This document shows, piece after piece, positions 21,921 to 43,789 of a DNA stretch of 64,000 nt. Each line of letters begins with the position of its first letter. The stretch's first letter is position 1. The DNA is from an uncultured Flavobacteriales bacterium (GTDB lineage Bacteria > Bacteroidota > Bacteroidia > Flavobacteriales_G > Salibacteraceae), in NCBI GenBank assembly GCA_937121175.1, contig CAKZKD010000012.1:1-64000 (forward strand), in the 5' to 3' direction. The position numbers and the translations under genes were made by a program. The notes under the pieces are model-generated. The model saw nothing but the letters and a program-made list of their open reading frames with translations, was not told the origin of the DNA and searched no databases.

Positions 21921-23351
21921 CTACTCCACTTTCAACAACCAAGGCTCACCCTTTATCACACCTTTCGAGTTTAACTTTTTAACCCGAACCAATTCACCAC
22001 GGCAATCTTCTCGGTGCTCGCACTCTTTGGAATAAATTAAAAACCTGCCAGATTTTTCGTTTTTCATCAACTCCGAACCTTGACTGTACTCTCTCTGCAA
22101 AATCTTCTGCATAGAAGTAGCGTGACCCATTTCGTTAAAAGAACCTATTATAACTCTATACTTAGCGTCCAAATCTTCTGATGAATGATGCACACTGTCC
22201 ACATGAATGGAATGGTCGTCTTTTTCTGAAGTGATTTTTTCTACGTGGTCGTCGTAATGGTCGTGTAATTCTTGTAAACCATCAATCACGGCTTTCATAG
22301 AATCTTTTTGAGCTTCAGAATATCCTTGCTTTAAATCATCAATTTCTTTTTTATTGGCCTCGTTTTGCTGTTTTAATATTTCTAATTGCTCAAAAAGTTC
22401 CGCGTTTTGATTTGTTAGTTCTTCAAATCTTGCATCTGCTTTCGGGTCTTTTTTCTTTCCTAATCGCAGTCCAAGAATTATTTCGTGCGCACCTGTAGTT
22501 ACGTTTGACAAAGAACCTGTGTAGTAATGGTAAGAATAGGCAAAGCTCATTTTCTCAGAAAGTTCCAGTCCAACCGTTGCATTAATTCCTAAATCTTGTT
22601 TGTACAAAATGCCTAACCAAACTTGGTCTTTCCACCAACCAGCTGCTCCACCTTCAAACTTTATTGGAGCTCCATGAGAAGACCTTAGTACAACTAATGG
22701 TTTTACAGCAAAATCTTGATTAATTTCATAGTTATAGCCTATGGTTCCTATGTACTGGCGCAGTAAGCTACTTTGCAAATTAGTTTGGTCAATAGTGTTC
22801 GTGTAAGAAAAGTTTGGCTCAGTAATATGGTTCATGGCAAACCCTACCTCTAAATCTTTCCAGACATATCTAAAACCAGCGCCTCCATCAAATGTCGAAG
22901 AATAATTATTCTCGGAAAGCAAGACAGACTCTTGAGCATCCTTGGCTCTAATGTTATCGAAATTTATTCCTCGATAAACTAACCCAGCATTCACTCCTAA
23001 ATCAAAATAATGCTCTTCTGCAATCTGAGCACGATAGCTAAATGCAGCGTATCCAACATGATGACGCATTAACCCTTCCACATCATTCTTAAACATCAAT
23101 CCAATTCCAATTTTTTCAGGAACTACACCCCAATCGTAAGTCAAATACTGAGAGGTAGGACTTCCATCAATACCAGAGGCATCTTTTCGAACATCAAGTA
23201 AAATGGATTGTTGTTTAAATTTTCCAGCATAAGCTGGATTCAAAACAAACGGATTGATAAAGTAATTGGACGAATTCAAATCCATTTGACCTAGTGCTCC
23301 TTCAAAACAAAAAGCACTCAAAACCAACGCTATAAATATCTTGTTTTTCAT
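21921..23351 (-). CDS. PorP/SprF-family T9SS protein with coiled coil and SPOR-like tail
   Basis: A signal peptide is followed by a PorP/SprF-type outer-membrane barrel (residues about 22-300), recognisable by NYFINPFVLNPAYAGK, the repeated barrel strands and the closing HEIILGLRLGKKK. PorP/SprF proteins help secrete and anchor type B T9SS cargo at the cell surface. This one continues with a coiled coil (about 300-360: NAELFEQLEILKQQNEANK), a His/Asp-rich linker (about 360-385), and a C-terminal SPOR-like fold (about 387-476: YRVIIGSFNEMGHATSMQKI ... RFLIYS) of the peptidoglycan-binding kind. It is the last gene of the seven-gene operon, four bases after the type B adhesin that is its likely client. 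Confidence 0.85.
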   Translation of the reverse strand: MKNKIFIALVLSAFCFEGALGQMDLNSSNYFINPFVLNPAYAGKFKQQSILLDVRKDASGIDGSPTSQYLTYDWGVVPEKIGIGLMFKNDVEGLMRHHVGYAAFSYRAQIAEEHYFDLGVNAGLVYRGINFDNIRAKDAQESVLLSENNYSSTFDGGAGFRYVWKDLEVGFAMNHITEPNFSYTNTIDQTNLQSSLLRQYIGTIGYNYEINQDFAVKPLVVLRSSHGAPIKFEGGAAGWWKDQVWLGILYKQDLGINATVGLELSEKMSFAYSYHYYTGSLSNVTTGAHEIILGLRLGKKKDPKADARFEELTNQNAELFEQLEILKQQNEANKKEIDDLKQGYSEAQKDSMKAVIDGLQELHDHYDDHVEKITSEKDDHSIHVDSVHHSSEDLDAKYRVIIGSFNEMGHATSMQKILQREYSQGSELMKNEKSGRFLIYSKECEHREDCRGELVRVKKLNSKGVIKGEPWLLKVE

Positions 23352-23355
23352 ATTG

Positions 23356-27351: not shown

Positions 27352-27352
27352 A

Positions 27353-30300
27353 CTAATGAATCTTTATAAATTTTTTCGATTGAACACTTTTACCTGCTAC
27401 ACAGCGCACGAAATACAAGCCAGCTGGAACTGCTGAAACATCATATAATCGGGTAAACTCCACTCCATTTACCAGTTCTTCGTTGTGCAGGTGACCGTAT
27501 AGGTCAAAAACTTGAATTTTTACATCGGATGTGGTGTTCAATTTTACATGAACATTGAGTTCTCGCTGTGTAGGATTTGGATATAATCCCAATTCAAGTA
27601 TTTCGGTGTAAGTGTATATTGCCTCTGGTTCATGCTCCACACTTCTCGTAGGTTTTTTTACAGAAACCGTTTTGGTGAGCGTGTCAGAACATTGAGAATT
27701 GCTTACGGCAAGTTTTACATCAAAATCACCTTCTACGAAATAGGGATAAAACGCGTGCAAACTTGGGTCGGTGAATCCGTCGTGCATTATCCAAACTTGA
27801 TTATCGGGAATAGGGAAACTTAGATTAATAAACGCTACGGTATCTCCTATTTCAATTTCGTCAACTGCAGTAAAATCTGCTGTAATCTCTAAATTGGTGT
27901 ACAATAATTCCAACGTATCTGTAGCCGAACAACCAGCAGAGTCAAGCACTTCTACCCTATAAGAACCGGTATCGGTTAGTACAACTGAACTGTCCGTAGA
28001 ACTAAAACCATTGGTAGCCGACCAATTAAGAGTCGCTTGCGGATAATTCAGTGAAATACTTTTATCAGCATTTTTACACAAAGGTTCATCAGGGCCTAAA
28101 TCAACATTAAAAGCAGGGTTAATCGTTACCAATATTTCGTCAGAACCAATGCAAGAATTTGTATCGGTAACCGTAACTTTTACTCGCTGAGAACTGGATA
28201 TAACAACTTGCTGGGTTGTATCTCTAGTACTCCATTGGTAGCTACTTGTTTCAAAACCAGCATCTAAGTCAATAGCGTTACCATTACAAAGCGTGGTATC
28301 TGCACCTAATTGAACATCAGGCGAAGTATTGACCGTTATTGAAATGGTATCGGTGAATACACAACTTAAACCAGACGTAGCCTTTGCCCAAAATTCATCT
28401 GAGTTGGTTACCTCTATGTCTTGAGACGTTGAGCCTCCCTTCCATTCGTAGGCACTTGCGGCGACATCTATTTTCAATGAAAGAGAATCACATACTACTT
28501 GGTCAGCGCCTAAATCGAATTGTGGAATAGGATTCATAGTAACATTAACTTCATCCTCATCTGTACAAGAATTGGCGTCGGTAACTGTTAGTCTATAAAT
28601 ACCCGTTTTGGTTGGTGTAATTTGGTTGGTGGTTGCCCCGTTTGACCACGCATAAGTTGGCACAGTTACGCTGCTGGTTAATTGAAAAACAGAATCGGAA
28701 CATGCGGTAATATCTCCTCCCAAATTAAGATTTGGACTTGCATTAACGGTAACCACAATGGTGTCTGAACCCGTACATGAATTAGGGTCTGTGACCATTA
28801 CATAATAGGTTCCCGAGGTAGTCACTTTAAACGTATGCCCAGCAGAAGTTCCATTCCAAAGAGCAGTACTTGCAGTTGCCCCATATCCACTTTTTAATTC
28901 AATTGAATCACATACAGAAATATCTGGTCCTAATTGAGGTTTTACGGCGGTATTGAGGGTTACGGTTACAGTATCCGAAGCGGTACACCGTTGAGAGTTG
29001 GTAACGGTCACTGAATAAACCCCAGAATTTCTAACCGTAATGCGCTGTGTACTTTTTGCATTACTCCATACAAAACTTGAACCTGCATTACCGGCATTTA
29101 TCTCCAAGGAATTTCCGCAAGTTGCAATGGCGGGACCAACAGAAACTGTTGGTTTTGCGTTTACAGTAAGCGGTTTTGAAAGCGAATCCACACAGCCGTT
29201 AGAAGAACTTGCAACCAATAACACATTTTGCGAACCTGCTGAAGCATAAGTAGTTGCAGGTGAACGTAACACTGAGGTATCTCCATTACCAAAATACCAC
29301 TTGTAGTTTAGCGTACCCGAAACAATTGCACTGGAATTCGTAAACGATACTTGGTCTCCTTCACACGCCCTTGAAGCGGTAAATCCTGCAACTGGATTTG
29401 CATAAACATTTATTGGTTGAACGACTGAATCGGCGCAACCGCTATCAGAAACCACATTCAACTTGGCAGAAAAAGCTCCAGAGCCCTGATATGCATGCTT
29501 TGGAGAATTAAGGGCACTTGTGTTACCGTCTCCAAATGTCCATTGACTTGAAAAAGTACCAGCCGACAAACCGGTTGTGTTCGTAAAAGTCGCACTATCT
29601 CTAGAACAAGTATTGGTAGCAGAGAAAGCAGCACTCGGAGCTGCATGAATTGTAACTGTATCCAAAAAGCTCGCTTTACAGTTCTTGTCACTTGTTAGTT
29701 CTAGAGAAACAGTATAATCTCCGCTTGTTGCATAGTTGGTACTTGGGCTTTTTTGCGCACTGGTCACAAAATTACCAAGGTTGTAATTGTAAGTTAACGT
29801 TCCCGAATTTATTTTGCTGCTGTCGGTAAATACTATTTGCTCATTCGGGCAGTTGTTCGAGAACACAAACTTTGGTTCTGGGTTAGGAAAAATAGTTATG
29901 TTTTTGAAAGTTGAATCGCTACACCCTTGGCTTGTTGCCTCTAGTTTCACTCTAAAAATTGTGTCTTTAGCAAAAGCATGTGAAGGTTGATTTAGAATCG
30001 AGGTATCACCATCGCCAAATTCCCAACGGTAGGTAATCCCCTGTGTTCCTGGTACCGAAGAAGTATTGGTGAATGCGATAACACTATCTGTACATGCTCC
30101 AGCAGCCGTAAATTTCGCCTCCGGAATAGCCAGCACCACAACAGAACTAGAAACGGATTTGGAACACCCTAAGTTGGAGGTGGTAGTAAGCGAGACGCTA
30201 AAAGTTCCGAACTTGGTGTACAGATATTTGTTCGAATCTGAACTCGAAGTATCTTCAGTACTAAACGGGTCGCCAAAATCCCAATCGTAGGTAATACTGC

Positions 30301-31537
30301 CGCTCGAAATTTTAGAGGTATCCACAAAAACCGCAGAATCGCCCAAGCAATGTGGGTCAACATAAAAGCCCGGCTCTGGGTCTGGAGCGCGCACGACAAC
30401 AGTAGAATCAAAATTTACGCAACCACCATCGCTCACTACTTTAATCCAAAAAAGTCCCGTATCGTTCACCAAAATGCTATCAACGCCCGTTAAGCCATTA
30501 CTCCAAGTAACATCTAAATCTCCAATACTGTCAGCGGGGATATAAATGCTGGTTCCAGAGCATAGCGGAAAAGTATCTTGTGGTATATCAACATAAGGAA
30601 GTGCATCGCAGGAATCTTCGGAAAGGGTAATTCTAGTTTTGTTGTTTATCGTGAAAGTTTCTGTATTGGTTACTTTATTGTTATTTGAATCTACCGAGCC
30701 ACCAATGTCTCTCCAGCTCAGGCCATCTTCTGTAGAATAATAAAATGCTAAATCCGATTGTGTGTTTCCATTGAGTCCAGTTGTGTCTAAGTAGGTCATT
30801 CCAACATTAGAAATGTCATCGTTTATTTTTGGAAGAATATTGTAATACCAATTAATGCTGCCATTTGAAGCATTGGTTTGCTCTTGGTGATACCTCCTAA
30901 CCTCTGTTTTATTACCCAAGTTGCCTGCTATGGTGAGGTCAAAACCTGTTCCGTGCAAATCATTATACGTTTGACCGAGCGTAAGTGGTCTGTCCATTTT
31001 TATGTACCCAGGGTATCCAAAAACGTGTGAAGAAGTATCTTCCTTTTGCAATGTTCCGTTAAGGTTTCCCCACAAGTAAGGGGTGCGTTTGAGGTGCAAG
31101 ACGCCTTTATCCACACTAATTTTTCCGTTAGTGAAGTTTACTTTTTTGGTAACATAAACGGTGTCTTTATGGATAAACACCGTATCAGCTGCATTGTCTA
31201 TTGTTAGGTTGGAAAAGTAAATCGCCTTACCTCCAAATTTTTGGTTTCTAGAGCCATCCAAAAACACATGACCAAGGGTATCGGGCAAATTTCCGAAGAC
31301 ATACACTCCGCCTTCGTTTACAATAGAATCGGAAACATATATATTCCCTAAATTGATGACTATATTTCCGTTGTTTCCGTCAAGACTTTCTAGCCCGCCC
31401 TTGATTTTGACATCGGTGTTTTGTTCTATTAAAAACAACTCACTGGCGTGCCGCAAACGCAGCGGCGCTTGAGACCACGCTTGAAGCGACCCAAGGAGGA
31501 TTAATCCTAAAATTATATATCGATTTTGAATCTTCAT
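27353..31537 (-). CDS. PKD-repeat adhesin with type A T9SS sorting domain
   Basis: This is a 1394-residue secreted protein. After a signal peptide (to about residue 23) comes a 300-residue beta-helical-looking region (INLGNIYVSDSIVNEGGVYV). Five PKD repeats follow (about 385-800: YRWEFGDGDTS, SQWTFGDGNTS, YKWYFGNGDTS), then about seven Ig-like units (800-1230) with the spacing LG-x-D-x-x-x-CDS ... VTVTD-x-x-(S/G)C-x-x-(S/T)D. The C-terminus (ELGLYPNPTQRELNVHVKLN ... GLYFVRCVAGKSVQSKKFIKI) is a type A T9SS sorting domain, normally removed when the protein is attached to A-LPS. The gene starts one base after the collar gene and ends one base before the type B adhesin. Confidence 0.9.
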   Translation of the reverse strand: MKIQNRYIILGLILLGSLQAWSQAPLRLRHASELFLIEQNTDVKIKGGLESLDGNNGNIVINLGNIYVSDSIVNEGGVYVFGNLPDTLGHVFLDGSRNQKFGGKAIYFSNLTIDNAADTVFIHKDTVYVTKKVNFTNGKISVDKGVLHLKRTPYLWGNLNGTLQKEDTSSHVFGYPGYIKMDRPLTLGQTYNDLHGTGFDLTIAGNLGNKTEVRRYHQEQTNASNGSINWYYNILPKINDDISNVGMTYLDTTGLNGNTQSDLAFYYSTEDGLSWRDIGGSVDSNNNKVTNTETFTINNKTRITLSEDSCDALPYVDIPQDTFPLCSGTSIYIPADSIGDLDVTWSNGLTGVDSILVNDTGLFWIKVVSDGGCVNFDSTVVVRAPDPEPGFYVDPHCLGDSAVFVDTSKISSGSITYDWDFGDPFSTEDTSSSDSNKYLYTKFGTFSVSLTTTSNLGCSKSVSSSVVVLAIPEAKFTAAGACTDSVIAFTNTSSVPGTQGITYRWEFGDGDTSILNQPSHAFAKDTIFRVKLEATSQGCSDSTFKNITIFPNPEPKFVFSNNCPNEQIVFTDSSKINSGTLTYNYNLGNFVTSAQKSPSTNYATSGDYTVSLELTSDKNCKASFLDTVTIHAAPSAAFSATNTCSRDSATFTNTTGLSAGTFSSQWTFGDGNTSALNSPKHAYQGSGAFSAKLNVVSDSGCADSVVQPINVYANPVAGFTASRACEGDQVSFTNSSAIVSGTLNYKWYFGNGDTSVLRSPATTYASAGSQNVLLVASSSNGCVDSLSKPLTVNAKPTVSVGPAIATCGNSLEINAGNAGSSFVWSNAKSTQRITVRNSGVYSVTVTNSQRCTASDTVTVTLNTAVKPQLGPDISVCDSIELKSGYGATASTALWNGTSAGHTFKVTTSGTYYVMVTDPNSCTGSDTIVVTVNASPNLNLGGDITACSDSVFQLTSSVTVPTYAWSNGATTNQITPTKTGIYRLTVTDANSCTDEDEVNVTMNPIPQFDLGADQVVCDSLSLKIDVAASAYEWKGGSTSQDIEVTNSDEFWAKATSGLSCVFTDTISITVNTSPDVQLGADTTLCNGNAIDLDAGFETSSYQWSTRDTTQQVVISSSQRVKVTVTDTNSCIGSDEILVTINPAFNVDLGPDEPLCKNADKSISLNYPQATLNWSATNGFSSTDSSVVLTDTGSYRVEVLDSAGCSATDTLELLYTNLEITADFTAVDEIEIGDTVAFINLSFPIPDNQVWIMHDGFTDPSLHAFYPYFVEGDFDVKLAVSNSQCSDTLTKTVSVKKPTRSVEHEPEAIYTYTEILELGLYPNPTQRELNVHVKLNTTSDVKIQVFDLYGHLHNEELVNGVEFTRLYDVSAVPAGLYFVRCVAGKSVQSKKFIKIH

Positions 31538-31538
31538 G

Positions 31539-32585: not shown

Positions 32586-34570
32586 TTTTTCTGATTTATT
32601 GTTGTTTCGTTAATATCTGATTTCAGCACCTTGCCTCGGGTACTAATGGCTCGAACCTGAACGAAATAGGTTCCAGCATTTGGTACTTTAAATGTGTTAC
32701 TGTTTTTTTTAGAAAGTCCTGAAACAGGTCTCATGTTCTCTTTTTTAGTGCCAGCATAAATGGTGAATCCTTCTAGGTTCTTTGTAGGAACCTCATCCCA
32801 AGAAACAGTAATCTGCTTTTTCTTCGAATTACTTCGAACTTGAATTCCTGTAGGTTTTATATCTCCTACTCTTTCTGGTAACCCACCATAAAACGACGAA
32901 CTCATTTCACTTTCTAAACCATTGGTGTCTTCAGCTTGCAATTGGTATTCGTAACGGATTCCTGCTTTTGCCAAACGATCGGTATAGCGCAAACTGGTTT
33001 TTGGTAACGCTTGGAAGTTTACTTTTTTGAAAGCCATGGTATCCCCTTTCGGGCGTTTGTACAAATTGTACCCTTTAAGGTCGCTGTCAACATTAGCCAA
33101 CCACGCTATTTGTAGCTGTTCTACACTGTCTTTTTTTATTATATCTATGGCCTTTATCAATGGTTTTTGTGGCGGATAAATATCAGGGAGGCCTGCCACT
33201 ACCACCTTCGAAGGCCTGCTGTAATTGAAATTGGTGTCCATAGCCAATACATAGAAAGCAAAGGGTTGTGTTACGTTGTCTTGTAATTTAAACGTATAGT
33301 TCGTGCTATCAAAAAGGTCTCCCGTAATGGCAATCCAAGAATTATCGTCGTTGTTGTCGTCTGCAATAGAGCGGTAAATTTTATACCCTTTTAAATCTGC
33401 CGCATTGCTTTTGTTAAAATTAAATGAAAAGCGTCCGGTATCTGACTTTACAGAAAATGAGGTAGGAATTTCTGGCGGAATAACATCACCCAAAAAGATT
33501 CGTGCCGCATTTGAACGTTTTGAAGTAGCGTTAAACACAGCCTCTACGATTGAAACTTTCCAACCAATTTTATCTGTAACATATTCATAAGAATTAGCCT
33601 CAACGGGAAGAGTTTCTTGCGTTTTGAGTACCGTGTCTTTCTCAGTAACTTCATAAATATTGAACCCTTTTAAATCCTTACTTTTTTCGCATTGCCATTC
33701 TACCACTACCTTCATTTCATTGGCTTTGGTAGATAAATTGGTAATTATTGCACCTGGGCTATCTGTATATTTTAAGGCTGGAGCGGCAAAGCTTTTACTT
33801 GGCTTAGATACTCTTCCGAAATAATCTCTAGCCACCAACTGGTATTCGTAATTGCTTCCTTTTTCGATTTTAATATCTTGGTAAAATGTCTTTGCCCACT
33901 TGCCATTTTTCAACTTTCTGGGTCGAGCTGGCATGTCGTTTATTTTTTCAAAATTGCCTTCCGATTTTCGATATATCCACAATCCAGAATGAGACAATTC
34001 TTCAGGCTTCCAATTAATGTTTACCCCTTTTTTGTTTCTTTCCACCATCACACTATCAGGCACAGTAACAGATGAAAATGAACCCATTTTATAAGGCTCA
34101 GAAACTCCAATTTCTATTTCACCTTCCATAAGCTTGTATTGCACCGTTTGACCTTCCAAAACAGTTGGGTCGTTAACCATCATACCAATGGCTGTGGCAA
34201 ATTGATTGGAGTGAATTCCTTGCAACACCACAAACACCTTCAGTAATTTATTGTCCTGAAATTTTTGGTAATCCATGCTCGTTAAGGCTCTGTAAAGTCC
34301 TTTGTCTGCTGTCTCAGAAAAAGCATTGGTGTCAATCGATTTATCGATTGTAATGGGTGCAGAATTCACTTTTTGCCAGCTTCCTGAATTTACATTTCGG
34401 AATAAATCAAAGCCTTTTTCAGAATAAATCGAAGTTGTTACCCATTTAATAGAAGCGCCTTCAACATTTTCAACTCCATCAGAAACGAATATCTTAGCCG
34501 ATTTTTGAGCAATGGCATGTTGTCCGATAAATAGAACAACCAAAAGCGATATGATATTAAAAATTTTCAT
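32582..34570 (-). CDS. Fibronectin type III repeat protein, exported
   Basis: The 662-residue protein has a signal peptide (to about residue 21) and about five to six fibronectin type III domains, shown by repeated hydrophobic-W, YxIYR/YNLYK and YxYxLxAxD patterns (GFDLFRNVNSGSW, KGYKIYRSIADDN, KGYNLYKRPKGD, RYEYQLQAEDTNG, EGFTIYAGTKKEN). There is no sorting domain at the C-terminus, so its surface attachment, if any, must be by partner binding. It starts one base after the TANFOR gene and its stop overlaps the start of the collar gene (ATGA). A structural spacer or scaffold role within the same assembly is inferred. Confidence 0.8.
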   Translation of the reverse strand: MKIFNIISLLVVLFIGQHAIAQKSAKIFVSDGVENVEGASIKWVTTSIYSEKGFDLFRNVNSGSWQKVNSAPITIDKSIDTNAFSETADKGLYRALTSMDYQKFQDNKLLKVFVVLQGIHSNQFATAIGMMVNDPTVLEGQTVQYKLMEGEIEIGVSEPYKMGSFSSVTVPDSVMVERNKKGVNINWKPEELSHSGLWIYRKSEGNFEKINDMPARPRKLKNGKWAKTFYQDIKIEKGSNYEYQLVARDYFGRVSKPSKSFAAPALKYTDSPGAIITNLSTKANEMKVVVEWQCEKSKDLKGFNIYEVTEKDTVLKTQETLPVEANSYEYVTDKIGWKVSIVEAVFNATSKRSNAARIFLGDVIPPEIPTSFSVKSDTGRFSFNFNKSNAADLKGYKIYRSIADDNNDDNSWIAITGDLFDSTNYTFKLQDNVTQPFAFYVLAMDTNFNYSRPSKVVVAGLPDIYPPQKPLIKAIDIIKKDSVEQLQIAWLANVDSDLKGYNLYKRPKGDTMAFKKVNFQALPKTSLRYTDRLAKAGIRYEYQLQAEDTNGLESEMSSSFYGGLPERVGDIKPTGIQVRSNSKKKQITVSWDEVPTKNLEGFTIYAGTKKENMRPVSGLSKKNSNTFKVPNAGTYFVQVRAISTRGKVLKSDINETTINQKK

Positions 34571-34571
34571 A

Positions 34572-37500
34572 TTAGAATTCTAAATCAACATCAAAATCAA
34601 AATCAGCACTTATAATATCCAGAACTACAGCTTCACCACTCAATGTTCCACTAATTTTTAGAGGATTGTCACCTGCTGGAGGATTTAGCGAAACGGTACC
34701 ATCTAGCGCAACTGACGCAAGCGTACAAGAACCAGAACCTCCTAAGAACCAATATCTAGCGGAAAGATCAGCCGACAAACTCAATTGAGTTTCTAAAAGC
34801 CCTAATTCGAAAGGGTCTATTTTTATTCCAGCACCGAAGGCCAGGCTATAATTTGCCTTAAATCCTATTCCGGCTCCAACAAAATCGTCACCTATATCAA
34901 CACCTAAATCAAAACCTAAAGACTGCTTCGCATATACGTAAGCTCCATCGTTCTCAATTCTGAAATAGCCTTTTCCCTCAAAATCGCCACAACCAGGTTT
35001 TACCGAAATTAAGTTCTCTTCATTTCCTACTTCAATAATCCAAGTCTTTTCTTTAGGCTTACTTTCAAAGAATAGAGTCCCTTTTGTACAAATTATCTCT
35101 TCCGAATTCCAACCCGCTGTTCCGGAAATCATTGGTGTTTCTTTATCGATATAGAATTGCAAAGCACCCTTTGACACACCTCCTGCCGATTCGCTGATTT
35201 TACTAGTAACGTACTGCGGTTCTGCAGCAGCAGGAATACTCCCTGCCTTAGAACTTTTTGGTGGAGCTGCTGCTTCGGCAAAGAATATTGGAGGTAAATT
35301 GAACTTGCTACAGCTACCTGATTTTTTGCCGCTCAATCCAGCAGTTCCAGCTTTTAACTCAAAATCGCAACCGCCACCTTCAAAACCAATAACGGTATTG
35401 GCATCGGCATCTGCCCCAAACTTAACGTGACCTAAAGAGCTGTTCCCTAAACTGAATTTGGTGAATTCACCCTCAACACTCTCCAGTCCTGCAACGAATC
35501 CTGCGAAATCAACATCGGCTCCAAAACCACTTGGAACATCCAATATTTTTAAATTAACTGGGCTTAAATTGATATTAAATGGAATGCCATTTTTAAAGAA
35601 ATCGAGGTTGAGTGTTCCTAATTTGAATCCTAAAACAGCGCTAGGAGAAATGTCTAAATCAATTCCAGCATCTGGAATGTCAAACCCGATTCCACCCAAT
35701 GTTGGAATTCCAATTTTACCAGCTTCGAAGGATAATGCTCCTAAATAATCTCCTCCGAAATCGAACCCAACTTTAAGTTCATCGTCCCAAATTTTTCCTA
35801 TTCCATTTCCGAAGGTAATGGTTCGGTCAAAAGCCTCTATATCCAACCAATTGGTTGTGTTCATTCCAAAAGACAAATCAGTACCCAAGTTAAAGTTGAA
35901 TGAGGCTGGGCTTATTGAAATCCCACCAATGGGGTTTTCTAATTTCAGTCCTTTAACACCTTCAATATCAACTAGGCCCAATTTAATATCCTCGTAGGCC
36001 AAATCAATTCCACTACTTCCTAAATCGAATGAAAACAGGTCATTTTTGAAACTCAGTGGGTTTTGTGCACTGAACCCAGCTTCTATTCCATTAACGTTAA
36101 TATCAATTTCATCAAGACCTAATTTTATATAATTGCTTGCATCAATATTTAAATCAAACGAAGCATCACCAATCGAAACTCCTGTAAGGTCATTGAACAA
36201 TTCAAATTTTTGTGGACCTATTTCAAAGTGGCGTTCGGTATCGTCATACACCAATTTTTCGACAGGATTAATGAATAAGCTCACCTTGTCAATCTTTAAG
36301 TCTAGCGTTGCATTTTCCAGCTTGACATATTTTTGTTGGTCGTATTGCAATAGGATTTTTTCGGTTAAATCAACCGTCACTTTCTTATCCTGTTTCTCCA
36401 AGTTAATTCCCTTGGTTTCGTCCATCCAAGCAACGTAATTTTTAGAAGACTCTGTAAAATCTAGTCGGTCGTCCACATCTAAAGTGGAAGAAATAGTTCC
36501 ATAATTGATTTTTCCTCCTGCTTCGTTAATTTCAATGTTTTTATCGCTTGAGGCATTGATTTTCAGGACGTTGTTTTCAAGAACATAGGTTAAGTCTCCA
36601 GCTGCTACATCAACTTTTGAAGCTGTGTTTTTTGCAGACCAAGTTGCGCCATTCACCGTGGCATTAATCGAACCTAAGTTTCCATTTGAAGTTAAAGTAA
36701 CCGTATTGGAACCGGCATAAGCAAGCGTTTTTTCATTACCCGTAATGGTCGCTTTTACTTTACCAGAGTTGGTTTTGTAGGTTGCTTTTATGCCTGATTC
36801 CGTAGTACCATTTTTATCGATTTCTAATCCGTTGGTTAAAGTTTCTTGTATGGAAATAACATCCGAACCATCGGTAATCTTTAAATCACCCTCGTCGTCC
36901 ATTTCGAATACTACTCCACCAAGAGTAAGTTTATAATCAGCTTCTAAATCATCCGCATCGGCAGAAACTTCTATAAGGTTTCCATTTTGGTCAATGCTCA
37001 TGGTATAGTCTTCATCGTCTCTAGAAGCTTTTGCCAATAACCCAGCACCTTTAATTTCTAATGTTGACTCATCCGACTCTGCTGTGAAGTTGTAACTGTC
37101 TGAACCATCGGTTAACGTAAACGCACCCGTTTCTGCACTAAAGTCAGCATTTGATAAATAGATTATTTGTCCACCGTTGTAGTTGAAGTTTAACTTTCTG
37201 TCTTTTAAAGCTCCAACAACATCAAAGGTTACTCCTGGGTCTTTGAATTGGACGGTGTATAATCCTTCTTTGTTTCCACCAGCCGAAATTCCACTTCCGT
37301 CAATAAAAATGGCACCGCTCATGGTGTCTTTAGGAATCATGTATCCAGAGAAATCGTATCTAGAATCCTTGTAACTAAAGCTTCCAAATTCACCCGAAAT
37401 TCCTTCATATTCTTCAGCTGCAGCCATAGGAATTCCACTTTTGCAACCTGCGGCAGTTAAGGTTGTTTCACTATCTGATAGGTAGAGAGACCCGAATTTT

Positions 37501-40500
37501 TGGATTTTATTTCCTATTAAATCCACTTTGTAATTGTCTTTTTCTAAGCCTAATCGTCCAAAACCTTTTCCATATCCCGAAACGCTTAATGTATATCCTT
37601 CTCCATTAAACCAGGCAAATGCAGAATCGGCAAGTACACCCGAATTAATTTCGTAGTCGTTTTTGTATTTGAAGTACAAGTCTCCTGTTTTCTCCTTTGG
37701 TGCTGCTTTTAGGTTGAATTTTATATCGCTATTTTCAAAAAGTACTCGGCCAGAATCAACCCCTGCATTTCCTCCTACTCCAAATTTATTTCCGTCAACT
37801 TCCATTTGAATAAAAGCATAGTCTCCGTTCTGTAATTCACCATAGAATTTTTTCGTGGCATCATGCTCGTAGTTAATAGTTCCGCTCAAATTTGGCTTAT
37901 CAAACGTGGCATCCATCTTTTTTCCTTTGTAATCCAAGTGAGCTTCTCCAACGTATTGTGCATCTGCTTCCCCCTTAAAATCAATTGCGCTGCTTTTGTA
38001 AGTGAAAGCTCCTTTTTTATCATTTGCCCAAAAAGTTGCGCCTAACTTGGTTCCGTCAATATCCATGTCAGCTTTTACAATTTTTGTCGAAGGGTCAGCC
38101 TCCATATCGTAAATTGTGTTTTCGTACGTGAAGCCTGCAAACGCTTTGCTGTTTTCGACCATTCCATAAACTGATTTATCGGTGGCATAGGTGAAATCAC
38201 CTCGCAATTTTTTGGTATTACCGTTTCCACTTACTTTCAGTAGCTTACCGTCGTATTCTACTGTTGCATCTATTAGTTTTCGGTCAAAAGTGAGATTCGA
38301 CGTAAGTTTCATACCCTCTAATGTTCCGTTAACAAAAGCTTTTCCTTTGGTTTTAGAGCCGAAATCCAAGCTATTACTTCCAGCTGCAATTTTCATATCA
38401 AAATTCCCGTTGGAATAACCGGTTCCTGTAAGCTCGTTGCTTCCTTTTTTAAATCCAATATATGCTCCAGGAACACCACTGTCTTCTTTTTTCTCTAAAC
38501 CAGCATAAATCTCTTTGCCTTTGTTTTCATACCAGAATTGATTTCCGGCAGAACCAATTTGAAGTCCTAAAACATCGCTATCTAAGAGGGGAATTTCAAC
38601 TTTTGGCAATTCTGTTATTTCTTCAATGACTTCGATTAATTCTGTTCCGGCCATTGCCGCAGCTTGAGCTGCACCGCCTGAACGTCTGTTTCCGTTAATA
38701 CAAGAAATATCTCCGGTTACGTTCATAGTGTAATTGGTACCCGATATTTTCATATCCGCGACCCAATCACTTTGGAAAATAGCGCCGCCTGTTTTTCCAT
38801 CAATGATTTGCATAAAGGTGGTTTGAGCTAAATCTGTGCTCTTATCGAACTTAAAAGCATCACCTTGTAAACTCATGTGGTGATACATTCTGCCCTCAAA
38901 ACCAACACAATTGAATGGTTCCATAATAGGAATTCCAGTTCCAGTTTTGTCTTCGAAATACGAATCGAAATACCAATATTTGGTGCCGTCTTTATCTCCA
39001 ACAATAATATTAGCCTGCATTGGAACCTCAACTGGAAGGAGCATTTTACCTTCAATTTTTCCAGCGAAAACGGTTCCTAAATTCGGGTCATTATTCACCA
39101 ATTCTACCCAACCTTTAAATTCATTCATTGGGTTATTAATCTCTAGATAAGTCGAACCGGTTACCTCTCGTTGACTCTCCATTCCTTTTTTGTAAGGAAC
39201 TTTAGGAGGAGCAAGTGAAGCGTTCTCAAATTCAGGTTGATACTTTTCGTCAACCCCCATTACGCTACTAAATGCCATTTTTGGAGGACCGTCTCCTCCA
39301 TCTAATCGATTTCCTAAATCAACATCTGACAATAGAGAAATCATATAAAAACCGCTTTCGTAGGTAGCTGCTATTTCATTCAAGAGAAATTTAAATCCTC
39401 CGTGGCTGCCACTTATCGGTGAACTCAAGCTTCTACTCCCATTGCGCTTGCCAAATCCGATATAGCCATCGCCATAAATTTTAAAATCGGACATATTGCT
39501 GAATTTTGCATCCAACACCGGGTAGGTAATATCAACAGTCACATCTAATCGTTCTCGGTCTGCAAAAACGGCTCGTTTAATATCCACGTCCATTTTATTA
39601 TCACCACCGTAAGGATTGAATTTTAGTTTTCGATTGCCTAGTTCTTGGTCAATAAATCCTTCCATAACACCTTCATTGGTAAGTGGAACAGTAAACGAAA
39701 AGACTTCATTTGGTCCCAGAAATGGTATTTTAAACTCGCCTGTGAGCTTACTTTCAGTTAGGTTACTTTTTTCGATATTGATAAGCCCGGCTAACGTTGA
39801 AGGAAAACTGTTGAAGGCTAATTCATCGTCTTCTACTTCAAACTCCCATTTAAAAAACAATCCTTCGGAGTTGGTATAAAAACGAGTTCTTCCTTTTTGT
39901 TCTACATCAAATTCGCTGTCGAATTTGGCTTTAAGCTGACCAGTATTGTCCATGTTTTTGGTAAATACAGCTTTAAATTTTGAAAAGTAAACCCCTTTCC
40001 ATTCCTTGTCAGAAGAGCGACTCCCAGGAGATTCTGTTTCGGAAAGGTCGATAATGGCATTGTAAGGTTTAAGCGCAAAGGACGAATTCTCGATTGGCGT
40101 AAAATGATTAGGTGCGTTACTCATGAGGTATGGAGCTTCGAAAACGAATAAACTGTTGGCATCTTCAAAAGGAATGATGTACCCTTTTTCATCGTTGGTT
40201 GGAATGTAATCCGGCAAATGAAATTCACCACCCAAACGCAGGTTGTAGGTGTTTTGCCCAACCTGAATATCACCGGGTTCTTTCAAGAAAAGTTTATGAT
40301 GCAACGGGTCTGCTAAGTCAAACTCATTTTCACCCGACAATAATCCAGTTCCGGAAATTTTGTAGTCTTTATCTACTTGGTAATAGGCCAATTCGGTTTT
40401 AACAATTGCAGGTTGCCCACCTTTTACTGGATGCGGCAGTGGCCATTCGATAATACCCCCGTAGTACAGTCCTCTTTTGGTCAATTTACCTGTTTTAAAA

Positions 40501-41987
40501 ATAAAGGTGGCCGGTCCGTTTTCTTCAAGTTTTGGTTTCAAATCCAATGCATCTCTGTTTTCTAAGGAGAAAAGCACTTCACCGTCTTCCATATAATTTA
40601 GCCCAGATATTTCTTTGATTTTTACACCAGAAAACTCGCAGCTTACCGTGTCAGATTCGTCTTCAGACAATTGAACGATACCCCTACCCTTTAAATCTTG
40701 CAGGTCTTTTTTATCTACTCGCTTTACAAATACTTTGAAATTACCAGCGCTAAATTCCTCAATGAACGGAGGTCCATAAAAATCCCAAACTTCAGAAGCT
40801 GCCACTTCTTGCTCTCCGGAAGTTGCGGATACCTGCCATGCATAATGGTCATCGGTATCTAGAGTTTGATTCAGCTCCCAGCTTGCTCCTTGCGTTGACC
40901 TTGTAGAACCGAGAGTTTGTTCTGCCCAAGCAGGATTATTTTTAATGGCTTGTTCTGGTGATTGTCCTTCCTTAATTTTTACAATCTTAATTGAATAAAC
41001 AAATTCTTGTCCTTGAACTTTTTTGTCGGTAGCCGTCCATTCAAATATTTTTTCGTCATTTTTTCCAATTGTACCGCCATCTGCAGGTGACTTTAAAGAA
41101 ATTAAACCTCCAGTTGGGTAACCATAATAGAACCAGCAAAACTCACTTCGTCCATCATTAGCATATACATTTCTGCCCAAATTATCTTTGGCTTGCACTT
41201 GGTAAGAGTAGCGATACCCTACATCCAACTGTGTGGTAGTTAAGTCTAAATTAAACGTGGACTGCGTCATTGGAATGGACTCAAAAACACGCATGCTCTG
41301 ACCGTTTTGTACTGCAGCATATCCGTCGGCATTAGGGTCTAATATTTTCCAAATTGACAATGTGTATTGTGAGTTTGCAGCTAAGCTCGGCGAACCACCT
41401 GGCGAAGCCTGCCAGCCAAACAACACCGATTGAGGAACAGTTGGCGTAACCATCTTCTCACATTCAGGATTCATAAGTCGTGGCGGTTGTTCTTGGAAAA
41501 TATTCACCATGGCACACCCTTGTTGACTTATTTCTATTCCGGTTCTGTAGTCTAGAACAGTAATGCATATTTGATAGAAACCTTCTGGCAACCGACCGCC
41601 ATTCTGATAAAAAGCATTGGGGTCGGTTCCTGAAACATTTATGTTGTTGGGGTCTAAATACGGACCAAAATCGGTACTTTGAAGTACGTAAGGAACACCA
41701 GCCGATAAGGTAATTGGACTTATTGGCTGAAAGCTTTGTTTGGTTTCAATTTTTATGTTGTTGCTCTCAATTCTTATTTTAAGTCGAACATCAAAAGTCG
41801 GTCGCTGAAAATCATTGGATACAATAGTTGAACGAAACGAAGTGTTTGACGCAGCCGAGAAGTCTTTAAGTGATATTGGGTAAGGTGGAGTAACCGTTGT
41901 TGTTACATTAATAGGATATACCTGCGCGAATACATCACTTGCAAAGACAAGAGCACTAATGCATAATATGGCTTTAAATAACTTCAT
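34572..41987 (-). CDS. Giant TANFOR-domain protein, 2471 residues
   Basis: After the signal peptide (to about residue 22), residues 23-190 match the TANFOR domain of Bacteroidota giant proteins: YPINVTTTVTPPYPISLKDF, FDVRLKIRIES, a GGRLPEGFYQICITVLDY strand and a MNPECEKM linker. Two fibronectin-like units follow (about 190-410). From about 410 to the end the protein is almost entirely short amphipathic beta-strands with Asp/Asn/Gly turns, some repeated at 20-30 residue intervals (KLRGDFTYATDKSVYG, GAFTYKSSAIDFKG). There is an alanine-rich break near 1140 and a low-complexity SSKAGSIPAAAEPQ linker near 2270. The chain ends in alternating FDFDVDLEF without a known sorting domain. The start shares one base with the stop of the upstream barrel gene. 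I cannot assign a function beyond a very large surface or periplasm-spanning beta structure. Confidence 0.8.
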   Translation of the reverse strand: MKLFKAILCISALVFASDVFAQVYPINVTTTVTPPYPISLKDFSAASNTSFRSTIVSNDFQRPTFDVRLKIRIESNNIKIETKQSFQPISPITLSAGVPYVLQSTDFGPYLDPNNINVSGTDPNAFYQNGGRLPEGFYQICITVLDYRTGIEISQQGCAMVNIFQEQPPRLMNPECEKMVTPTVPQSVLFGWQASPGGSPSLAANSQYTLSIWKILDPNADGYAAVQNGQSMRVFESIPMTQSTFNLDLTTTQLDVGYRYSYQVQAKDNLGRNVYANDGRSEFCWFYYGYPTGGLISLKSPADGGTIGKNDEKIFEWTATDKKVQGQEFVYSIKIVKIKEGQSPEQAIKNNPAWAEQTLGSTRSTQGASWELNQTLDTDDHYAWQVSATSGEQEVAASEVWDFYGPPFIEEFSAGNFKVFVKRVDKKDLQDLKGRGIVQLSEDESDTVSCEFSGVKIKEISGLNYMEDGEVLFSLENRDALDLKPKLEENGPATFIFKTGKLTKRGLYYGGIIEWPLPHPVKGGQPAIVKTELAYYQVDKDYKISGTGLLSGENEFDLADPLHHKLFLKEPGDIQVGQNTYNLRLGGEFHLPDYIPTNDEKGYIIPFEDANSLFVFEAPYLMSNAPNHFTPIENSSFALKPYNAIIDLSETESPGSRSSDKEWKGVYFSKFKAVFTKNMDNTGQLKAKFDSEFDVEQKGRTRFYTNSEGLFFKWEFEVEDDELAFNSFPSTLAGLINIEKSNLTESKLTGEFKIPFLGPNEVFSFTVPLTNEGVMEGFIDQELGNRKLKFNPYGGDNKMDVDIKRAVFADRERLDVTVDITYPVLDAKFSNMSDFKIYGDGYIGFGKRNGSRSLSSPISGSHGGFKFLLNEIAATYESGFYMISLLSDVDLGNRLDGGDGPPKMAFSSVMGVDEKYQPEFENASLAPPKVPYKKGMESQREVTGSTYLEINNPMNEFKGWVELVNNDPNLGTVFAGKIEGKMLLPVEVPMQANIIVGDKDGTKYWYFDSYFEDKTGTGIPIMEPFNCVGFEGRMYHHMSLQGDAFKFDKSTDLAQTTFMQIIDGKTGGAIFQSDWVADMKISGTNYTMNVTGDISCINGNRRSGGAAQAAAMAGTELIEVIEEITELPKVEIPLLDSDVLGLQIGSAGNQFWYENKGKEIYAGLEKKEDSGVPGAYIGFKKGSNELTGTGYSNGNFDMKIAAGSNSLDFGSKTKGKAFVNGTLEGMKLTSNLTFDRKLIDATVEYDGKLLKVSGNGNTKKLRGDFTYATDKSVYGMVENSKAFAGFTYENTIYDMEADPSTKIVKADMDIDGTKLGATFWANDKKGAFTYKSSAIDFKGEADAQYVGEAHLDYKGKKMDATFDKPNLSGTINYEHDATKKFYGELQNGDYAFIQMEVDGNKFGVGGNAGVDSGRVLFENSDIKFNLKAAPKEKTGDLYFKYKNDYEINSGVLADSAFAWFNGEGYTLSVSGYGKGFGRLGLEKDNYKVDLIGNKIQKFGSLYLSDSETTLTAAGCKSGIPMAAAEEYEGISGEFGSFSYKDSRYDFSGYMIPKDTMSGAIFIDGSGISAGGNKEGLYTVQFKDPGVTFDVVGALKDRKLNFNYNGGQIIYLSNADFSAETGAFTLTDGSDSYNFTAESDESTLEIKGAGLLAKASRDDEDYTMSIDQNGNLIEVSADADDLEADYKLTLGGVVFEMDDEGDLKITDGSDVISIQETLTNGLEIDKNGTTESGIKATYKTNSGKVKATITGNEKTLAYAGSNTVTLTSNGNLGSINATVNGATWSAKNTASKVDVAAGDLTYVLENNVLKINASSDKNIEINEAGGKINYGTISSTLDVDDRLDFTESSKNYVAWMDETKGINLEKQDKKVTVDLTEKILLQYDQQKYVKLENATLDLKIDKVSLFINPVEKLVYDDTERHFEIGPQKFELFNDLTGVSIGDASFDLNIDASNYIKLGLDEIDINVNGIEAGFSAQNPLSFKNDLFSFDLGSSGIDLAYEDIKLGLVDIEGVKGLKLENPIGGISISPASFNFNLGTDLSFGMNTTNWLDIEAFDRTITFGNGIGKIWDDELKVGFDFGGDYLGALSFEAGKIGIPTLGGIGFDIPDAGIDLDISPSAVLGFKLGTLNLDFFKNGIPFNINLSPVNLKILDVPSGFGADVDFAGFVAGLESVEGEFTKFSLGNSSLGHVKFGADADANTVIGFEGGGCDFELKAGTAGLSGKKSGSCSKFNLPPIFFAEAAAPPKSSKAGSIPAAAEPQYVTSKISESAGGVSKGALQFYIDKETPMISGTAGWNSEEIICTKGTLFFESKPKEKTWIIEVGNEENLISVKPGCGDFEGKGYFRIENDGAYVYAKQSLGFDLGVDIGDDFVGAGIGFKANYSLAFGAGIKIDPFELGLLETQLSLSADLSARYWFLGGSGSCTLASVALDGTVSLNPPAGDNPLKISGTLSGEAVVLDIISADFDFDVDLEF

Positions 41988-43705
41988 TAAAATGCAAATT
42001 GATAACCTATTATTCCAATATTTTCGGTGGCATTAACTGGAGGAGCAGCACTTGCTAAGTTTCGGTTTACTGTTGAATAGCTGGCATTAAAAGTGTGGTT
42101 TTTTCCAACTTTGTAATTTGCAAAAAGCCTTGCTGTGGTTATAACTCCTGCATTTACAGTGTTTATGGTCGTAACTAAATAGCTGGCAGCCGCACCCACA
42201 TTTAATTTATTTTTTAATAGAGGTTTAGAGGCTCCCACTGTTGGACCAACCAAATCGGTTTCGGCAGCAGGAGCAATGGATTTATTGTACGAAAGACCAA
42301 GCGTTCCTGTTAATTTGATTGGCTTATAGGTAATGTTGTAATTGGTCATTGCTAAGTAGGTTTGACTGTTTCTATCTCCATTGCTTACTGCCTCCTGGTA
42401 ATTACCAATTACCATTACGGATTGGTCAAACGTTTCACCTTTAAACATACGAGTGGCATTGGCACCGGCAGAAGTGGTTACTTGAGCAAAACGCAGGGTA
42501 TCGAAGCCTTCTTGAACTAATGTTTGATTGGTGCTAGTTGTAAAGTTGGCATAATTAGCCCCAAAATTCCATTTTTCATTTGGCGCATAGGTTGCCGAAA
42601 CAGAGCCAATTAATCGAAGCGTTCTTGTGAGTTTATCCGCATCTAAGTTGTTGCGCTGAAAACCCCCGGTAATTGAAAAGTTTAGTTTTTTATCTAAAAC
42701 TCCAAATCCGAGATTTGCGGTAACGTCTTCTAAATCATTATTCAAAAACACTGCACCTAGAGAACGATATCCAGGGTCAACTCGTCGGTAACCTAATTTC
42801 AAATTCGCCTCTTTGATTTTAAAGTTAGCGCCAAAATTCATGGCCTTTTTCTGAATGGTAGTTGGATTGGAATAAAATGCGTTACCAATATTGTTTAAAT
42901 AAGAATAGCCACTTTGAATGCCTTGTTCAATTCTGGTATCCTGCGTGAGTGCGCTAATCGTATATTCTCCAAACAAGGAAATCGACTTGCTTACAGGGTA
43001 TTTTCCGGTAAACCCGTACACCAAATTATCCGATGGCGTAATTAACAATGAATCGCTTCCTTCTAAAGAACTAGGGTCGTCTTTAGCTTTGAACACGTGA
43101 AATCCAATATTCTTATCTGCCTTTCCTACAATTACCTGCGCTCCACCACCCCATCGCTCGTAGGCAGGCGTTCCCACAATTATTAGATTTGGGTCGTACT
43201 CTATATTGGATTTTACAAACCGGCCAGCCAAAGCTTTAACGTGAATTATTCCACCTTCGGGTTGATACTCTACTCCACCTCCTACAAATTGATTACCTCC
43301 TAGTGAAAAGTCAGAAAACGTAACTGAACGCCATCCTATGTGGGCTGTCCAGGCTTTGTATTTTGGACTCATTCCAATTTGAGTAGGTACGGTAGGGTAT
43401 GTTCCGTCATTACCAGTAGGTGAAAACCGAGCAGAAAAGGGCATATTGATTGGCCCAGCTTTAATGTTAAGATTCGCACTTATTTGCCAAAAATGAGGTG
43501 GCCGTTGACTTGAAGCTCCTTTAATGTCATAAAATGTTGATGTGTAACCTATTCCGCCAGAAACCCCGGTTTCCTTTTTGACTTTATCCCAAAGTTTGGA
43601 TTTGGTCGACTCTTCCGATTCAGTTGCTTCTTGACCAACAGCTATAGCAGCTGTAAACAAAACTGTTGCAGATAAAATCGTTTTTATAAAATTCTCGTAC
43701 TTCAC
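41987..43705 (-). CDS. Outer-membrane beta-barrel protein heading the surface operon
   Basis: This protein of about 572 residues starts at the GTG at 43705 (a TTG at 43708 is an alternative). It has a signal peptide ending near AVGQ, an acidic/basic linker, and about 500 residues of amphipathic beta-strands (ISGGIGYTSTFYDIKG-like, FGANFKIKEANLKLGYRRVDP, NFGANYANFTTSTNQT), closing with GIIGYQFAF. The terminal Phe and the strand pattern are those of outer-membrane barrels. I do not recognise a named family. As first gene of the tightly packed operon it may anchor or export the giant protein encoded immediately after it. A weak -7-like TACCTTCA lies about 20 bases upstream, and the response regulator gene ends 81 bases upstream. 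Confidence 0.75.
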   Translation of the reverse strand: MKYENFIKTILSATVLFTAAIAVGQEATESEESTKSKLWDKVKKETGVSGGIGYTSTFYDIKGASSQRPPHFWQISANLNIKAGPINMPFSARFSPTGNDGTYPTVPTQIGMSPKYKAWTAHIGWRSVTFSDFSLGGNQFVGGGVEYQPEGGIIHVKALAGRFVKSNIEYDPNLIIVGTPAYERWGGGAQVIVGKADKNIGFHVFKAKDDPSSLEGSDSLLITPSDNLVYGFTGKYPVSKSISLFGEYTISALTQDTRIEQGIQSGYSYLNNIGNAFYSNPTTIQKKAMNFGANFKIKEANLKLGYRRVDPGYRSLGAVFLNNDLEDVTANLGFGVLDKKLNFSITGGFQRNNLDADKLTRTLRLIGSVSATYAPNEKWNFGANYANFTTSTNQTLVQEGFDTLRFAQVTTSAGANATRMFKGETFDQSVMVIGNYQEAVSNGDRNSQTYLAMTNYNITYKPIKLTGTLGLSYNKSIAPAAETDLVGPTVGASKPLLKNKLNVGAAASYLVTTINTVNAGVITTARLFANYKVGKNHTFNASYSTVNRNLASAAPPVNATENIGIIGYQFAF

Positions 43706-43789
43706 CAAAACGAGGCGAAGCTACTTTGAAGGTATTGGCTCGATTACAGGAATGTTACGAAACGAATGAATTGTGTTACGAACAAGAAA

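What the first reader, a model, noticed from the sequence alone, without database searches (positions are those of the whole stretch)
21921..43708. Seven-gene surface-apparatus operon with a TANFOR giant, a tail-fibre-like protein and both T9SS sorting types
Seven minus-strand genes are joined by gaps of 0-4 bases or overlaps of 1-4 bases, over 21.8 kb. The order is outer-membrane barrel, 2471-residue TANFOR protein, fibronectin-III protein, phage-collar protein, type A PKD adhesin, type B PKD adhesin, PorP/SprF with a SPOR-like tail. All seven have signal peptides. Such packing argues for one multi-protein surface structure made to a fixed ratio, with the PorP/SprF as exit or anchor and the barrel as a second outer-membrane component. 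Individual families are known; this combination as an appendage, adhesion or gliding machine is, as far as I know, not described. Function is inference.
Basis: partly seen in the sequence, partly recalled or inferred. Interest (0 to 1): 0.8.

Follow-up and report, generated by a model that had tools for sequence, protein, structure and literature searches.

The report
Toxin-less TANFOR-related surface-adhesion operon
Seven tightly packed genes in this flavobacterium encode a recurring set of surface proteins (a very wide outer-membrane barrel, a giant rod-like protein, a tail-fibre-like protein and two adhesins with their anchor), found in several families of related bacteria, that probably work together as a static attachment or contact structure and look like a toxin-free version of a known family of contact toxins.

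Summary
The same set occurs as a second, 25-37%-identical operon in the same genome, and in the same order in two congeners, in Salibacter halophilus and another family member, and in another family. A further Flavobacteriales MAG and two Cytophagales keep much of the set in permuted order. All genes diverge in step. The core is barrel-giant-FN3: the barrel is in 68 of 295 sampled genomes of the class, and 18 of 21 TANFOR hits lie directly beside it. The published TANFOR-toxin survey did not report this barrel among enriched neighbours. The barrel is predicted to be wide, about 26-stranded and plugless, most like MtrB in fold. The giant carries no recognised toxin domain; it ends in a conserved outer-membrane-like domain. 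The PorP/SprF proteins carry a SPOR-type tail and lack the twin cysteines of gliding SprF, which favours static anchoring over gliding. Best reading: a toxin-less, TANFOR-related, multi-adhesin attachment/contact apparatus; assembly, ratio and function remain inference. New variant of a known kind.

The parts
41987..43708 (-). Bar: 573-aa outer-membrane beta-barrel, about 26 strands, no plug domain, N-terminal periplasmic helix; no known sequence family
   Evidence: AF2 model pLDDT 87.6; best PDB fold MtrB 6r2q_B, Z 19.7 over 453 residues, 14% id; no Pfam hit; next to TANFOR-type genes in most loci
34572..41987 (-). TAN: 2471-aa TANFOR-related giant: signal peptide, TANFOR/FN3-like head, region shared with the separate giants of other loci, long single-layer-type beta stalk, conserved C-terminal membrane-barrel-like domain; no toxin domain recognised
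41511..41912 (-). TANFOR domain (residues 26-159), below the curated cut-off
   Evidence: TIGR02542, 20.6 bits, E 3.2e-4
35388..37940 (-). beta stalk of TAN (about residues 1350-2200), variable in length and repeats between homologues
   Evidence: regular 6-9-residue strands in the model; best matches OspA/ApoB-type long beta sheets, not specific; alignment A3
34575..35177 (-). TANc, conserved C-terminal domain of TAN (residues 2271-2471), outer-membrane-barrel-like
   Evidence: hmm hits in 25 of 92 TAN/giant proteins, all of the window type; long strands; OmpU 6ehb Z 10.7, 149 aa; alternating amphipathic strands 0.33-0.49 against 0.06-0.20 in the stalk, a home-made index
32582..34570 (-). FN3: 662-aa fibronectin-III protein, third member of the core triad
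   Evidence: fn3 37.1 bits; follows the giant in 31 of 34 uncut loci
31539..32585 (-). Col: 348-aa tail-fibre-like protein with gp12/gp10-type C-terminal domain (H-x-H motifs, N-[KR]-P..Y...[FY]IM end)
   Evidence: Collar 18.3 bits here, 28.1 and 27.8 in relatives; alignment of 24 paralogues
27353..31537 (-). PKDa: 1394-aa PKD-repeat adhesin with T9SS type A sorting domain
   Evidence: PKD_4 151.6 bits, Por_Secre_tail 41.8/43.3 bits
23356..27351 (-). PKDb: 1331-aa DUF2341 + PKD-repeat adhesin with T9SS type B sorting domain
   Evidence: PKD_4 240.6, CHU_C 77, TIGR04131 46.1 bits
21921..23351 (-). PorP/SprF carrier for PKDb, with coiled-coil and SPOR-like periplasmic tail
   Evidence: PorP_SprF 173.5 bits; SPOR above cut-off in two orthologues; no C-x-C in the tail
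21924..22163 (-). SPOR-like tail of the PorP/SprF protein
   Evidence: alignment by eye with SPOR-positive orthologues
43790..44509 (-). LytTR response regulator, possible regulator or part of the transcription unit
   Evidence: LytTR 67.2 and Response_reg 66.8 bits; two-component genes also upstream of Bar in G015 and G060
44510..46588 (-). TPR-histidine kinase (HisKA_2)
46608..47765 (-). 385-aa T9SS type A substrate, first gene of the same-strand run
   Evidence: Por_Secre_tail 35.1 bits

Best explanation
A static, multi-adhesin attachment/contact apparatus of the outer membrane, the toxin-less branch of the TANFOR-type loci of Bacteroidota. Core: Bar, a wide plugless barrel, holds or threads the giant TAN; TAN has an N-terminal TANFOR/FN3 head, a long beta stalk and a C-terminal domain seated in or at the outer membrane; the FN3 protein is the third obligatory partner. 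Accessory layer: a collar-type fibre that probably binds a receptor or glycan, a type A PKD adhesin exported by the T9SS via PorV, and a type B PKD adhesin exported and then held by its own PorP/SprF, whose coiled-coil/SPOR tail ties it to peptidoglycan instead of to the moving gliding track. Shown here: the genes, the domains, the conserved set and order, co-divergence, the barrel-TANFOR linkage, absence of a recognised toxin domain, absence of the gliding C-x-C motif. Inferred: signal peptides (by eye), barrel size and fold, the membrane seat of TANc, T9SS routing (from family knowledge), physical assembly, static anchoring, adhesion.
For: Same set and order in a second operon of the genome, G001, G002, G008, G015 and G060; permuted set in G071 and, in part, in Reichenbachiella versicolor L082 and Marinoscillum L085, where PorP-SPOR abuts Bar with gaps of 0 and -4. 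Mirror-tree r 0.94-0.99 for all 15 gene pairs. Bar beside 18 of 21 TANFOR hits, and in 17 of 17 TANFOR genomes against 68 of 295 overall; giant next to Bar in 39 of 46 loci, FN3 next in 31 of 34. Bar has a confident barrel model without a plug, best fold match MtrB. Conserved non-polymorphic TANc. SPOR above cut-off in two PorP tails, no C-x-C in any. T9SS present: SprA and GldM. Type B CTD bound and anchored by PorP-like proteins in P. gingivalis and F. johnsoniae (PMC9143113, PMC12618676).
Against: No expression, localisation or interaction data. Core and adhesin layer are separable: most Bar loci lack PKD/PorP. The collar is outside the operon in three of the eight core loci. The window's TANFOR and collar domains are below curated cut-offs. 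The TAN C-terminal model is only moderately confident (mean pLDDT 69) and its fold matches are unspecific. The window's own SPOR match is below threshold. Five of the eight core loci are close (G000p, G001, G002, G008) or from one family (G015), which inflates the mirror-tree correlations.
Confidence: 0.5

Rival explanations
1. Two separate devices in one transcription unit: a Bar-TAN-FN3(-collar) module and an ordinary T9SS adhesin module (type A + type B + PorP). They are co-expressed for the same situation but do not form one structure.
For: The triad occurs without the adhesins in most loci. The own genome has 20 type B CTD hits and 12 PorP copies, with about seven adjacent pairs, only two of them in these operons. 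Collar copies are loose.
Against: The adhesin module joins the core in three different gene orders and in several families, with PorP directly against Bar in two orders; shared PorP-SPOR type throughout the operon class.
Confidence: 0.27
2. A contact-dependent toxin-delivery system whose toxin is encoded elsewhere or has been lost; the giant is the delivery stick and the collar the receptor binder.
For: TANFOR heads carry polymorphic toxins in PMC7073777 and in loci here (PT-HINT in L101, ART in L099), and those loci carry Bar too. M43-type metallopeptidase genes sit inside two related loci.
Against: In the window class the C-terminus is one conserved domain, not a variable toxin; no immunity gene or toxin domain in or beside the operon.
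Confidence: 0.12
3. A polymer-capture and uptake device: adhesins bind a polysaccharide or particle and Bar imports the product, as SusCD-type systems do.
For: PKD, FN3 and DUF2341 domains are common in carbohydrate binding (family knowledge); among barrel fold matches are porins and TonB-dependent receptors.
Against: No plug or TonB box domain in Bar, no hydrolase or SusD gene in the operon or in the conserved set.
Confidence: 0.07
4. Gliding adhesins carried by the T9SS track, as SprB on SprF.
For: Type B adhesin + SprF-like pair, GldM and SprA present.
Against: The C-x-C motif that links SprF to GldK (PMC12635249) is absent from the tails of all eight core-operon PorP proteins and from those of L082 and L085; a SPOR-type tail points to the cell wall.
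Confidence: 0.04

Closest known systems
TANFOR polymorphic-toxin loci (Jana, Salomon, Bosis 2020, PMC7073777)
   Same: TANFOR-type N-terminus, signal peptide, neighbours with Fn3, PKD and type A CTD; the same barrel is present next to toxin-bearing TANFOR genes
   Different: No toxin or immunity; giant ends in conserved TANc; adds collar fibre, type B adhesin and PorP-SPOR. The barrel is not among the enriched neighbours reported there
Type B CTD adhesin + PorP/SprF (+ PorE) operons (SprB-SprF; PG1035-PorP-PorE; Fjoh_3952-3951-3950)
   Same: Type B substrate followed directly by its PorP/SprF gene
   Different: Tail is coiled-coil + SPOR, with no separate PorE gene and no C-x-C; linked to the Bar-TAN-FN3 core
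MtrB porin of the MtrCAB electron conduit (PDB 6r2q)
   Same: Predicted wide barrel of about 26 strands without plug (Z 19.7 over 453 residues)
   Different: 14% identity, no Pfam relation, no cytochromes in the operon; fold similarity only
Two-partner/CDI systems (CdiB-CdiA) and autotransporters
   Same: Outer-membrane barrel encoded beside a giant exported beta-rich stick (analogy)
   Different: No POTRA/Omp85 or TpsB signature in Bar, no CdiA toxin; barrel-like domain of TAN only predicted at moderate confidence

Membership tests
TANFOR domain (TIGR02542) | Score above curated cut-off (67 bits) | tested here: not met
   20.6 bits; no protein in 295 class genomes passes (best 46.8). Hence 'TANFOR-related', not a filed member
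TANFOR polymorphic toxins | C-terminal toxin domain, often with downstream immunity gene | tested here: not met
   No Pfam/NCBIfam toxin hit; conserved TANc in all window-type homologues
PorP/SprF carriers | PorP_SprF/TIGR03519 barrel above cut-off | tested here: met
   173.5 and 207.4 bits
PorP/SprF carriers | Gene directly downstream of a type B CTD substrate | tested here: met
   gap 4 bases
Gliding SprF | Twin-cysteine C-x-C in periplasmic tail | tested here: not met
   absent in all operon copies
SPOR domain | PF05036 above cut-off in the tail | tested here: inconclusive
   not in the window protein; 25.3 and 25.7 bits (cut-off 21) in the operon orthologues, 18.0 in G071
T9SS type A and type B substrates | CTD above cut-off | tested here: met
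   TIGR04183 43.3 (23), TIGR04131 46.1 (35)
T9SS substrates | Actual T9SS-dependent secretion | not testable with these tools
   SprA and GldM are present in the genome
Phage tail collar (PF07484) | Score above cut-off | tested here: inconclusive
   18.3 (cut-off 24) here; 28.1 and 27.8 in operon relatives
MtrB/PioB barrels | Sequence family match | tested here: not met
   no such Pfam match in 47 Bar proteins at E <= 1
MtrB/PioB barrels | Wide barrel fold of about 26 strands | tested here: met
   about 25 long + 1 short strand in the model; Z 19.7 to 6r2q_B; works-like only
CdiB/TpsB (Omp85) partners | POTRA domains and Omp85 barrel signature | tested here: not met
   no Pfam hit; only a signal peptide and one helix before the barrel

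The most novel reading that the evidence does not exclude
Bar is a dedicated outer-membrane export and display port for TANFOR-headed giants and toxins, a Bacteroidota counterpart of two-partner secretion with an MtrB-like sheath and no T9SS signal on the cargo; the window operon uses it for a toxin-less stick crowned by T9SS adhesins.
Probability: 0.2. Interest if true: 0.85.

Novelty: new variant of a known kind. Interest (0 to 1): 0.58.

Why it matters
It gives the TANFOR loci, until now known as predicted toxins with a speculated T9SS route, a consistent outer-membrane partner and a toxin-free branch, and so makes testable how TANFOR proteins reach the surface. It also links T9SS type B adhesins to a possible new way of being held still (PorP fused to a SPOR-type tail), the counterpart of the disulfide link that makes SprF move. 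A cultured carrier, Salibacter halophilus, has the whole set.

Tried and rejected
PDB sequence searches with the barrel profile and with TAN gave nothing. T9SS co-occurrence as evidence was rejected: SprA is in 284 of 295 class genomes, so the published >95% of TANFOR genomes with T9SS is not informative within this class. A link to ixotrophy grappling hooks could not be tested from the open papers found. An MtrB paper search found nothing under my terms. A SPOR-SprF paper search found none. Promoter and terminator scans were at chance level and gave no transcript ends. An OspA/ApoB/LptD relationship of the stalk was rejected as a claim: only long-beta-sheet resemblance at low confidence. Recent foreign DNA by composition: GC of the operon (0.39-0.42) is slightly above its surroundings (0.35-0.39), not decisive.
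Full report
The observation. The seven minus-strand genes are present at the stated places with gaps of +4, +1, +1, -4, +1 and -1 bases. Domain scans confirm PorP/SprF, type B CTD with PKD repeats, type A CTD with PKD repeats, and Fn3 well above cut-off. Collar (18.3 bits, cut-off 24) and TANFOR (20.6, cut-off 67) are below cut-off in the window proteins, and the barrel has no family. Signal peptides were judged by eye. On the same strand just upstream are a LytTR response regulator, a TPR-histidine kinase and a 385-aa type A T9SS substrate, with gaps of 81, 0 and 19 bases, so the transcription unit may be longer than seven genes.

The set is conserved far beyond close strains. A search with the giant protein found a second, complete relative in the same genome (contig C5) and others elsewhere. 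One to three collar genes lie after FN3 in the window, G008, G015 and G060, and collar copies lie outside the operon in G000p, G001 and G002. G071, in yet another family, has the set permuted (FN3-Col-Col-PKDa-M43 peptidase-PKDb-Bar-PorP-TAN). In two Cytophagales, Reichenbachiella versicolor (L082) and Marinoscillum sp. (L085), PKDa-PKDb-PorP comes first and Bar follows PorP with gaps of 0 and -4; TAN follows in L082, and a collar gene lies downstream in L085. Identities between the window copy and the others are mostly 25-40%. For the eight loci the identity matrices of all 15 gene pairs correlate at 0.94-0.99 (label-shuffle p of 0.006 or less), partly because three or four loci are close kin. 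The second operon of the genome is the orthologue of the congeners' copy; the window copy is a deeply diverged extra one.

The core is larger than this operon. A profile of the barrel finds it in 68 of 295 genomes drawn evenly from the class, 48 of 155 genera. The TANFOR model gives 21 hits in 17 of the same genomes. By comparing the two lists, all 17 also have Bar (23% expected), and 18 of the 21 hits lie immediately beside Bar on the same strand. Among 46 stitched Bar loci, a TANFOR-type or related giant follows Bar within three genes in 39, and an FN3 gene follows the giant in 31 of the 34 cases not cut by a contig end. A scan of named genomes returned 80 loci from Flavobacteriales, Cytophagales, Chitinophaga, Hymenobacter and others; 47 of the 54 with enough flank have a TANFOR head on the same strand. 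In Chitinophaga, Aquimarina and Cellulophaga the TANFOR gene is often of the toxin type (PT-HINT in L101 and ART in L099). Some of these loci carry a separate giant of about 1,600 aa beside Bar and FN3, and L125 joins a TANFOR head to that giant (E 1e-113). So the barrel is a consistent TANFOR partner. The published neighbourhood survey (PMC7073777) reports enriched SprB repeats, Fn3, PKD and type A CTD, and does not list it; the barrel has no domain model, which would hide it from a domain-based survey (inference).

What the parts look like. Bar was predicted with a 47-sequence alignment: mean pLDDT 87.6, about 25 long and one short strand, an N-terminal helix, and no plug. The best solved relative in fold is MtrB of the Mtr complex (Z 19.7, 453 residues, rmsd 5.8, 14% identity), above general porins that match only about half the length. 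No sequence family links them. A plugless barrel of this width would leak unless a partner filled it; TAN, FN3 or both are the natural candidates (inference). The C-terminal 1,200 residues of TAN were predicted at moderate confidence (mean pLDDT 69): a long run of 6-9-residue strands, matched only loosely by OspA-like and ApoB-like sheets, then a 200-residue domain with long strands that resembles pieces of outer-membrane barrels (OmpU Z 10.7 over 149 residues). In 22 homologues this last domain has strongly alternating strands (0.33-0.49 on a simple home-made index, against 0.06-0.20 in the stalk). It is recognised only in window-type giants, is conserved to the end, and so is not a variable toxin. 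Stalk lengths vary (whole proteins 1,367-3,225 aa).

The T9SS layer. The genome has SprA and GldM, 20 type B CTD hits and 12 PorP/SprF copies. Type B substrates are exported and held by their own PorP/SprF (PMC9143113, PMC12618676), so PorP here most likely serves PKDb, and PKDa goes by PorV (family knowledge). Gliding SprF is tied to the moving track through a C-x-C motif in its tail (PMC12635249). None of the operon PorP proteins has it. All eight core-operon copies, and L082 and L085, instead carry a long tail ending in a SPOR-like segment, above the Pfam cut-off in two. SPOR domains bind peptidoglycan (family knowledge), so the tail plausibly does in one chain what PorP plus PorE do in P. 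gingivalis: hold the adhesin still. This is inference.

Mechanism. I favour a static attachment/contact apparatus: Bar with TAN and FN3 as the outer-membrane core, a collar-type fibre as probable receptor binder, and two T9SS adhesins around it, one tethered to the cell wall through PorP-SPOR (0.5). The main rival is two co-expressed but separate modules (0.27): the core often occurs alone, and type B/PorP pairs are common in this genome. The permutations that keep PorP against Bar speak against that. A toxin-delivery reading (0.12) lacks a toxin or immunity gene; uptake (0.07) and gliding (0.04) fit worse.

Novelty. T9SS adhesin/PorP pairs, PKD adhesins and TANFOR loci are known; the toxin-less branch with its conserved giant, the barrel partner with an MtrB-like fold, and the PorP-SPOR fusion in this set were not found described in the papers searched. 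I rate it a new variant of a known kind. The most novel reading, Bar as a dedicated export/display port for TANFOR proteins, is not excluded (0.2).

Noticed in passing
G000:C5:346993-359489 (L039): Five collar-fibre paralogues, interleaved with response-regulator and kinase genes, lie beside the second operon; G001 has shortened or broken collar pieces at the same place. Looks like a variable receptor-binding cassette.
   Followed up: partly
L055:8946-10085 (G071) and L082:2745-3845: A metallopeptidase-like gene lies between the type A and type B adhesin genes in two distant loci; the L055 one is M43 type with its own type A CTD by Pfam, the L082 one was judged by position and N-terminus only.
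   Followed up: partly
G000:C2:534931-535743 (L008): Another PorP/SprF copy of the genome sits in a 656-aa frame with an OmpA-like C-terminus that contains a C-N-C motif, another kind of wall-linked carrier.
   Followed up: no
SprA is in 284 of 295 class genomes, so the reported >95% co-occurrence of TANFOR and T9SS carries little information within this class.
   Followed up: yes
G212, G183, G069, G250 (L140, L141, L144, L145): A shorter form: Bar followed by a giant of about 975 aa without a recognised TANFOR head, and FN3 in three of the four (the fourth contig ends).
   Followed up: no
L119, L133, L135: Giants of about 1,600 aa near Bar and FN3 without a recognised TANFOR head; in L119 a separate TANFOR gene lies upstream, so head and giant can be split or fused (fused in L125).
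   Followed up: partly
window 16667-19878: TonB-dependent receptor and DUF4249 gene pair just beyond the ABC-F gene that converges on the operon; ordinary Bacteroidota uptake pair.
   Followed up: no
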